NCBI GenBank assembly: GCA_020073525.1
Contig: JAIQFA010000008.1
Coordinates: 1 to 64,000 of the forward strand
Length of the DNA stretch: 64,000 bases
From: Terriglobia bacterium
GTDB lineage: Bacteria > Acidobacteriota > Terriglobia > Terriglobales > Acidobacteriaceae
Direction: 5' to 3'
Below are positions 3,559 to 4,316 of the stretch, piece after piece. Position numbers and translations under genes: made by a program. How positions within the stretch are numbered: the stretch's first letter is position 1; the number at the start of each line of letters is the position of its first letter. The notes beneath the pieces were generated by a model. That model ran no database searches. It worked only from the letters and a program-made list of their open reading frames with translations, and was not told the origin of the DNA.

Positions 3559-4308
3559 ATGAAAAGCGCCACTCTACAAGAGATCGTCAAGGTGCTGGCC
3601 CGCCAATATCCGGCGGCCTGGGCGGCGCCCGGCGACCGCACCGGCTTCCAGGTGGGGCGCCCTGACAGCCAGGTGGCCGCGGTCCTGGTAGCCCTGGAGG
3701 CCACCCCGGCGGTCATCCGGGAAGCCCAAAGCCGGGGGACGCAACTGCTGCTGACCCACCATCCCGTTCTTTATCAGCCTCTCACCGAGGTGCGCGAGGA
3801 TAACCCCGGCGGTCAGTTGCTCAGCGCCCTGATCCGGGCCGGCCTTGCCTCGGTCTCCTGCCACACCAACCTGGACGTGGCCCCCGGGGGCCTCAACGAT
3901 TTTCTGGCCCGAAGCCTGGCCCTGGCCGACGTGGAGATCCTGGCGGAAACCGGACGGGATAGCCTGTACAAGCTGACGGTCTTTGTGCCCCTCGACTACG
4001 AGGACCGGGTGCGCCGGGCCCTGACGGACGCCGGATTGGGGGTCATCGGCCGCTATTCCCATTGCGCCTTTGCCGCCCGGGGCCAGGGCACCTACCAGCC
4101 TTTGGAGGGCGCCCGGCCCTTCCGGGGGGAGGTGGCGCAGCTTAACCGGGTGGAGGAATCCCGGCTGGAGGTCTTGACGCCGGAGTCCCTGCTCCCCACC
4201 GCCCTGGCCCGGCTGCAGGAAGCTCACCCCTACGAGGAAGTGGCCTACGATCTGTATCCTCTGCAGAACCCCGGCGCCTCCCTCGGGTTCGGCCGCCTCG
4301 GCAATTGG
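3559..4308 (+). CDS. Nif3-like dinuclear metal-centre protein, 3' end lost at the contig junction
   Basis: Nif3/YqfO-family protein with a two-metal site; members are annotated as GTP cyclohydrolase I type 2-like, but the role is poorly known. Seen: an N-terminal start like the family, the metal-site strands [13 protein letters not shown] and [19 protein letters not shown], then the inserted PII-like domain found in YqfO-type members (about residues 130-235, ending in [20 protein letters not shown] sequence). The match runs up to GFGRLG and stops: about 110 C-terminal residues, which normally supply the second half of the metal site, are missing. From about 4303 the DNA is antisense to zwf, although the frame stays open to 5409 by chance. 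The ATG at 3559 has no clear ribosome site because a terminator lies just upstream. Nif3 after rpoD/tRNA fits Desulfobacterota. Confidence 0.85.
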
Positions 4309-4316
4309 GCGTTGGC
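4300..4316. other. Junction of two unrelated sequences (probable chimeric assembly point)
   Basis: Reading rightward, Nif3 homology ends at GFGRLG (codon ending 4302). Reading leftward on the minus strand, glucose-6-phosphate dehydrogenase homology ends at YGEGIMDGQ (codon starting 4314). Both genes lack their C-termini, they converge on the same 17 bases, and no repeat, recombinase or attachment site is visible there. Gene style changes at the same point. Confidence 0.85.

What the first reader, a model, noticed from the sequence alone, without database searches (positions are those of the whole stretch)
4300..4316. Contig-level chimera: a Desulfobacterota-like end joined to an Acidobacteriota-like genome
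The Nif3 frame (plus) and the zwf frame (minus) lose their homology within the same 17 bases, each lacking its C-terminus. Left of the point the gene order is dnaG-rpoD-tRNA-Nif3; right of it gene style is acidobacterial. There is no mobile element or repeat at the point. A real transfer would have to break two essential-type genes exactly where they meet. The 616-residue frame that crosses the point is an artefact.
Basis: partly seen in the sequence, partly recalled or inferred. Interest (0 to 1): 0.85.

Follow-up and report, generated by a model that had tools for sequence, protein, structure and literature searches.

The report
Assembly chimera of two bacteria
The first 4.3 kb of this contig come from a different bacterium than the rest and were almost certainly joined to it by mistake during sequencing or assembly, so the join is an artefact and not biology.

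Summary
Confirmed: window 1-4308 and 4309-64000 come from two unrelated lineages, joined bluntly at 4308/4309. The window is the left end of a 101,196-base contig (C71) of a 210-contig genome with 5.65% contamination. The left block (dnaG, rpoD, tRNA-Met, nif3) aligns at 75-76% to four Deltaproteobacteria/Syntrophobacterales MAGs, up to 4302 in DNA and about codon 250 of nif3. There nif3 is 372 aa and is followed by a zinc-ribbon gene, not zwf. The right part aligns from 4309 to same-genus genomes. Of 23 such relatives, 19 match right of the join and none left of it, and 17 have zwf in a frame of 515 aa or more. The genome has native dnaG and rpoD on C11/C6. The zwf 3' end and following pgl were not found in it. 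Left tetranucleotide distance is 0.412, against a maximum of 0.246 in 186 right-hand windows. No repeat or long shared word bridges the join, so a chimeric read/insert or short-overlap misjoin is likelier than a shared-k-mer collapse. Reads were not available. Verdict: artefact; the 616-aa frame is not a gene.

The parts
1..1523 (+). dnaG (primase), 5' end cut off by the contig end; foreign (delta-type)
   Evidence: TIGR01391 over positions 79-413 of 414; 70-71% aa to L007-L010; 33-38% to five same-genus dnaG; groups with the four delta rows at 100/100
1540..3264 (+). rpoD, complete; foreign (delta-type)
   Evidence: NF004208/TIGR02393; native rpoD of the genome on C6 is 54-56% identical
3380..3455 (+). 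tRNA-Met(CAT); foreign (delta-type)
   Evidence: ARAGORN, Rfam RF00005; tRNA-Met also in L008, L009 and L010, within the collinear alignment
3559..4308 (+). nif3 (DUF34/NIF3), first 250 codons; last third missing; foreign (delta-type)
   Evidence: PF01784 positions 2-138 of 256; 68% aa to the 372-aa nif3 of L008 over its residues 2-250
4308..4309 (.). chimeric join
   Evidence: left DNA homology ends 4302 (blastn) or 4309 (L068), protein homology ends 4308-4311; right homology starts 4309
4309..5265 (-). zwf (glucose-6-phosphate dehydrogenase), first 319 codons; last third missing; native
   Evidence: TIGR00871 positions 2-295 of 486; 80-92% aa to full zwf frames of 17 same-genus genomes
5351..6343 (-). 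gnd (6-phosphogluconate dehydrogenase); native
   Evidence: NF007161, TIGR00872; collinear in 7 of 8 same-genus loci, not in L038
6522..9416 (-). fused transaldolase/phosphoglucose isomerase; native
   Evidence: NF007080; collinear in 7 of 8 same-genus loci, only its 5' part in L038
3559..5409 (+). 616-aa frame crossing the join: artefact (nif3 start plus antisense of zwf)
   Evidence: only residues 5-166 match a Pfam family at E 0.001; frame listed

Best explanation
The contig is a false join made in library preparation or assembly. A 4.3-kb piece of the dnaG-rpoD-tRNA-Met-nif3 segment of a Desulfobacterota-type (Deltaproteobacteria/Syntrophobacterales) bacterium was fused to the cut zwf end of an Acidobacteriota-type genome. 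Shown: two lineages meet at 4308/4309, both genes are truncated there, and native dnaG and rpoD exist elsewhere in the genome. Inferred: because no repeat or long shared word was found at the join, the cause is likelier a chimeric read or insert (or a short-overlap misjoin) in thin coverage than a collapse on a shared k-mer; the wrong branch was then extended to the contig tip.
For: Left block: 75-76% DNA identity with conserved order in four delta MAGs, stopping at 4302 in the two that read that far; dnaG groups with the delta rows at 100/100. In 5 of the 7 delta loci given, nif3 is full length and followed by the same zinc-ribbon gene (the other two, L007 and L009, end before). Right block: homology to same-genus genomes starts at 4309; 19 of 23 relatives match the right side and 0 of 23 the left side; in 17 of 23, zwf lies in a frame of 515 aa or more at 80% identity or above. 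Collinear with same-genus contigs to about window 20,000. Native dnaG (C11) and rpoD (C6) lie on contigs that overlap by exactly 41 bases. The zwf 3' end and the pgl that follows it in relatives were not found in the genome. Tetranucleotide distance 0.412 against mean 0.163, sd 0.025, max 0.246 in 186 windows. Native dnaG+rpoD, the control for gene type, lie at 0.230 (188 right windows of that size: mean 0.188, max 0.272). The alien block sits at the contig tip; genome contamination 5.65%.
Against: No reads were available, so physical linkage was not tested. The join is blunt: the 31 bases left of it match eight native relatives at 9-14 of 31 and the 31 bases right of it match two delta relatives at 8-11 of 31. 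That does not fit the misassembly route by a shared repeat or k-mer. A search of the bin with 19.8 kb around the block in L008 found, beside the block itself, only 8 short matches (rpoD core, tRNA genes and stretches of 35 to about 200 bases; 40 of 78 candidates scored), so the bin is not visibly full of the delta genome. The donor species itself is not among the genomes searched (best 76% DNA).
Confidence: 0.96

Rival explanations
1. Real horizontal transfer: a delta-type segment carrying dnaG-rpoD-tRNA-Met-nif3 was inserted into zwf of this strain by illegitimate recombination, and the contig happens to end inside the insert.
For: The join is blunt, without a long shared word, as in illegitimate end joining; there is a tRNA in the block, though about 850 bases away.
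Against: None of the six main frames scanned in 1-9,416 matches a mobile-element family (short frames were not scanned) and no repeat was found at the join. Composition of the block is still that of the delta lineage, 0.213 to delta and 0.421 to kin. It would be very recent, would bring a second housekeeping primase and sigma factor, and would break both genes at the same base. No match across the join in 23 relatives.
Confidence: 0.03
2. Shared-k-mer misassembly: a stretch identical in the two genomes let the assembler cross from one to the other.
For: Contigs C6 and C11 of the same genome overlap by exactly 41 bases, as de Bruijn-graph contigs do. It is a sub-case of the chimera reading above.
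Against: In 155 fetched loci that do not hold the join, no word of 13, 15 or 21 bases spanning it occurs; one 12-base word (4298-4309) occurs, in the nif3 of delta locus L068, and words of 10-11 bases occur here and there. The bases on each side match the other lineage at 8-14 of 31. No repeat at the join. The true parents are not in hand, so a shared word cannot be fully excluded.
Confidence: 0.12
3. The two blocks belong to one organism whose lineage is simply divergent (no chimera, no transfer).
For: None found.
Against: Native dnaG and rpoD exist elsewhere in the genome and the native dnaG groups with the genus at 100/100. Composition differs by about 10 standard deviations.
Confidence: 0.005

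Closest known systems
Chimeric contig by misassembly in metagenome-assembled genomes (as defined in the GUNC paper, PMC8201837; passages seen)
   Same: fragments from two sources in one contig; surplus copies of housekeeping genes
   Different: The join is blunt, without an evident shared repeat; the foreign piece is only 4.3 kb at a contig tip
dnaG-rpoD-tRNA-Met-nif3-zinc-ribbon gene cluster of Deltaproteobacteria/Syntrophobacterales MAGs (L008, L010)
   Same: gene order and 76% DNA identity over the left block
   Different: There nif3 is complete and followed by a zinc-ribbon gene (PF02591 in L008), not by zwf
tal/pgi-gnd-zwf-pgl pentose phosphate cluster of the genus of this genome
   Same: gene order and 74-86% DNA identity in the main pieces from 4309 rightwards in eight loci
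   Different: There zwf continues (194 more codons in 7 of 8 loci; L033 is cut by its contig end) and pgl follows in 6 of 8

Membership tests
Chimeric (misassembled) contig | two parts of one contig have nearest relatives in different lineages | tested here: met
Chimeric (misassembled) contig | composition step at the join | tested here: met
   (0 of 186 right-hand windows as distant); cumulative log-odds peak at 4335 within 1-12000
Chimeric (misassembled) contig | arrangement absent from relatives of both parents | tested here: met
   0 of 23 same-genus genomes; 5 delta loci read on from nif3 into a zinc-ribbon gene
Chimeric (misassembled) contig | native copies of the foreign housekeeping genes elsewhere in the genome | tested here: met
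   dnaG on C11, rpoD on C6; no second nif3 found
Chimeric (misassembled) contig | coverage step and lack of spanning read pairs | not testable with these tools
   no reads held
Chimeric contig of the k-mer-collapse type | shared word or repeat at the join | tested here: inconclusive
   none of 13 bases or more in the relatives at hand, no repeat; the two parents themselves are not in hand
Horizontal transfer / genomic island | mobile genes, attachment repeats or insertion at a tRNA end | tested here: not met
   no integrase or transposase among the six main frames of 1-9,416; no repeat; tRNA about 850 bases from the join
Horizontal transfer / genomic island | native sequence on both sides of the insert | tested here: inconclusive
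   contig ends inside the block, so the other border is unseen

The most novel reading that the evidence does not exclude
A very recent transfer between phyla of a segment carrying primase and the main sigma factor into zwf of an Acidobacteriota-type bacterium, by end joining without any mobile element.
Probability: 0.02. Interest if true: 0.5.

Novelty: not a real feature. Interest (0 to 1): 0.08.

Why it matters
The contig sits in a genome of a species-representative collection. Left uncorrected, it gives a false 616-aa 'Nif3 fusion' protein, a false second rpoD and dnaG, a false case of horizontal transfer, and a false truncated zwf. A foreign dnaG and rpoD may also add to the reported 5.65% contamination (inference). 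The practical fix is to cut the contig at 4308/4309 and remove 1-4308 from the bin.

Tried and rejected
Shared-repeat cause: no direct or inverted repeat of 14 bases or more in 3800-4800. My first count of shared words across the join printed a cut list, so I repeated it in full: nothing of 13 bases or more, one 12-base word, which lies in the delta nif3 of L068 at what looks like the homologous place (36 of 52 bases match up to 4309, 8 of 28 after it). Two exact words of 14 bases from just left of the join turned up in same-genus loci L033 and L035, but over 12 kb away from zwf and at blastn E 0.15 and 0.53, so I take them as chance, although 0 of 320 random trials shared such a word.

Composition merely reflecting housekeeping genes: rejected, because native dnaG+rpoD lie at 0.230 from the right contig and the alien pair at 0.421.

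Assembler word length: of 82 ends of 41 contigs (41 of 210 contigs) only one pair overlaps by 15 bases or more, C6/C11 by 41. So a word length of 41 is one observation, not a pattern, and C71's two ends overlap none of the ends fetched.

Finding the donor species: not in the 29 genomes of the order of L010's genome (best 76% DNA, long list cut) nor in the one genome-contig scan. All 29 have a match, but some only in the conserved rpoD core (G050, G051 and G053 for example), so that count alone says little.

Missing native remainder: the search of the own genome with the relatives' zwf 3' end plus 8 kb found only scattered matches outside zwf and pgl. Only 40 of 196 first-look candidates were scored there, so absence of pgl is less sure than absence of the zwf end, which the family search also did not find.

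Full report
Where the window lies. The window is bases 1-64000 of contig C71 (101,196 bases) of genome G000, which has 6,019,296 bases in 210 contigs, completeness 100 and contamination 5.65. Base 1 of the window is base 1 of the contig, in the middle of dnaG. The suspicious block is therefore a 4.3-kb contig tip.

The observation. Left of the join stand dnaG (cut by the contig end), rpoD, tRNA-Met and the first two thirds of nif3, all on the + strand. Right of it, on the - strand, stand zwf lacking its last third, gnd, a fused transaldolase/phosphoglucose isomerase and transketolase. nif3 covers only positions 2-138 of 256 of PF01784 and zwf only 2-295 of 486 of TIGR00871.

Exact position. 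blastn of the left side with delta loci ends at 4302 in L008 and L010. L009 and L007 end earlier (4094 and 3439), near or at the ends of their own contigs. Protein similarity runs to residue 250-251, i.e. bases 4308-4311, and the nif3 of L068 is identical to the window over 4298-4309. blastn with same-genus genomes starts at 4309 in the nearest ones. The join is at 4308/4309 to within about three bases, as the base-level view shows.

Left parent. One scan of named genomes gave 6 loci. Four of them match over 497-506 residues of dnaG at 70-71% and are MAGs labelled Syntrophobacterales or Deltaproteobacteria; the other two are 37-41% matches labelled Alphaproteobacteria and Clostridiaceae. The block is collinear with L008 and L010 throughout, with L009 into nif3, and with L007 until that contig ends inside the tRNA. 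In the order of L010's genome, 29 of 29 genomes have a match, the best at 76% DNA identity (the four already known), but some match only in the conserved rpoD core. Seven delta loci were tested for what follows nif3 (L007-L010, L067, L071, L072; L068-L070, L073 and L074 were not given). In the 5 that read past it, nif3 is full length and followed by the same zinc-ribbon gene; L007 and L009 end before. In a tree of 16 DnaG rows the left dnaG joins the four delta rows at 100/100, while the genome's own dnaG on C11 joins its genus at 100/100 (the tree warns of long branches, the left dnaG among them).

Right parent. Of 23 same-genus genomes, 17 have zwf at 80-92% identity in a frame of 515 aa or more. 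One has it split over two contigs (G018), one has only a partial copy at a contig end (G016), and 4 have no close copy (G004, G008, G021, G023), though G021 has a 57-base DNA match right of the join. Searching all 23 with 260 bases across the join, 19 match right of it and none left of it. In eight loci fetched, zwf continues in all 8 (in L033 until its contig end) and pgl (TIGR01198 in L036) follows in 6 of 8; L033 is cut, and L038 showed no pgl match. The right part is collinear with same-genus contigs to about 20,000. The lineage is not named by these tools. 'Acidobacteriota-type' rests on a 1187-aa TonB-dependent receptor (window 38130-41693) whose best match among plasmids is Granulicella tundricola, 47.8% over 99%. 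That Granulicella is an acidobacterium is recalled.

One genome, two sets. G000 carries its own dnaG on C11 and rpoD on C6. The dnaG is 76-83% identical to five same-genus copies, whereas the left-block dnaG is 33-38% identical to them. C6 and C11 overlap by exactly 41 bases and, laid together, give two open frames of 637 and 566 codons between stops, dnaG and, across the overlap, rpoD. No second zwf and no second nif3 were found, and the zwf 3' end was not found.

Composition. The tetranucleotide L1 distance of 1-4308 from the rest of the contig is 0.412. For 186 windows of the same size right of the join the mean is 0.163, sd 0.025, maximum 0.246. The left block is nearer to delta DNA outside the homologous block (0.213) than to same-genus DNA (0.421), and 0 of 186 right windows are nearer to delta. 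Native dnaG+rpoD, as a control for gene type, lie at 0.230 (right windows of that size: mean 0.188, max 0.272). Summed log-odds of a third-order Markov model peak at 4335 within 1-12000. Right of the join, 1 of 193 windows of 500 bases is positive, at 69,809 with +1.2. GC content is 0.625 left and 0.580 right.

How the join arose. The 31 bases left of the join match eight same-genus loci at 9-14 of 31, and the 31 bases right of it match two delta loci at 8-11 of 31; chance would give about 8 (my estimate, not computed). In the 155 fetched loci that do not hold the join (161 in all; the other 6 are copies of this contig), no word of 13 bases or more of those tested (13, 15, 21) spans it; the single 12-base word is the delta nif3 of L068. 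No repeat was found and there is no run of N in 1-7000. So the join does not look like a repeat or shared-k-mer collapse. A chimeric read or insert, or a short-overlap misjoin in thin coverage, is inferred. The GUNC paper (PMC8201837, passages seen) names misassembly into chimeric contigs as one of two computational error sources in MAGs, rarer than mis-binning. [quoted passage not shown]

Verdict. The most novel reading, a real and very recent transfer into zwf, is not excluded because no reads are held, but nothing found favours it except the blunt join. The 616-aa frame and the apparent second dnaG and rpoD should be discarded.

Noticed in passing
window 6402-6423 (+), 6449-6470 (-), 34873-34894 (-): An exact 22-base word (read from the window) occurs three times, twice as an inverted pair between gnd and the tal/pgi gene; mean 0.00 in shuffles. 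It looks like an interspersed palindromic (REP-like) repeat of the native genome.
   Followed up: partly
L036 about 12992-13207 (genome G009), with copies in G000 contigs such as C139, C170, C140: A stretch of about 220 bases downstream of pgl in G009 has many partial copies (78-86% in the best ones) on contigs of G000: an interspersed repeat family shared by the two genomes, of unknown kind.
   Followed up: no
G000 C6 right end / C11 left end: The native rpoD is split between two contigs that overlap by exactly 41 bases: these two contigs are probably neighbours.
   Followed up: yes
window 12854-14941 (+): A 695-aa protein with a GAF domain and a C-terminal TonB_C domain, a pairing that struck me as unusual (no search made).
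   Followed up: no
L038 (G005) near 9764-9811: In G005 the blastn matches skip from zwf (window about 5276) to about 8259 with only 47 bases between them, as if gnd and most of the transaldolase/isomerase gene were missing there.
   Followed up: no
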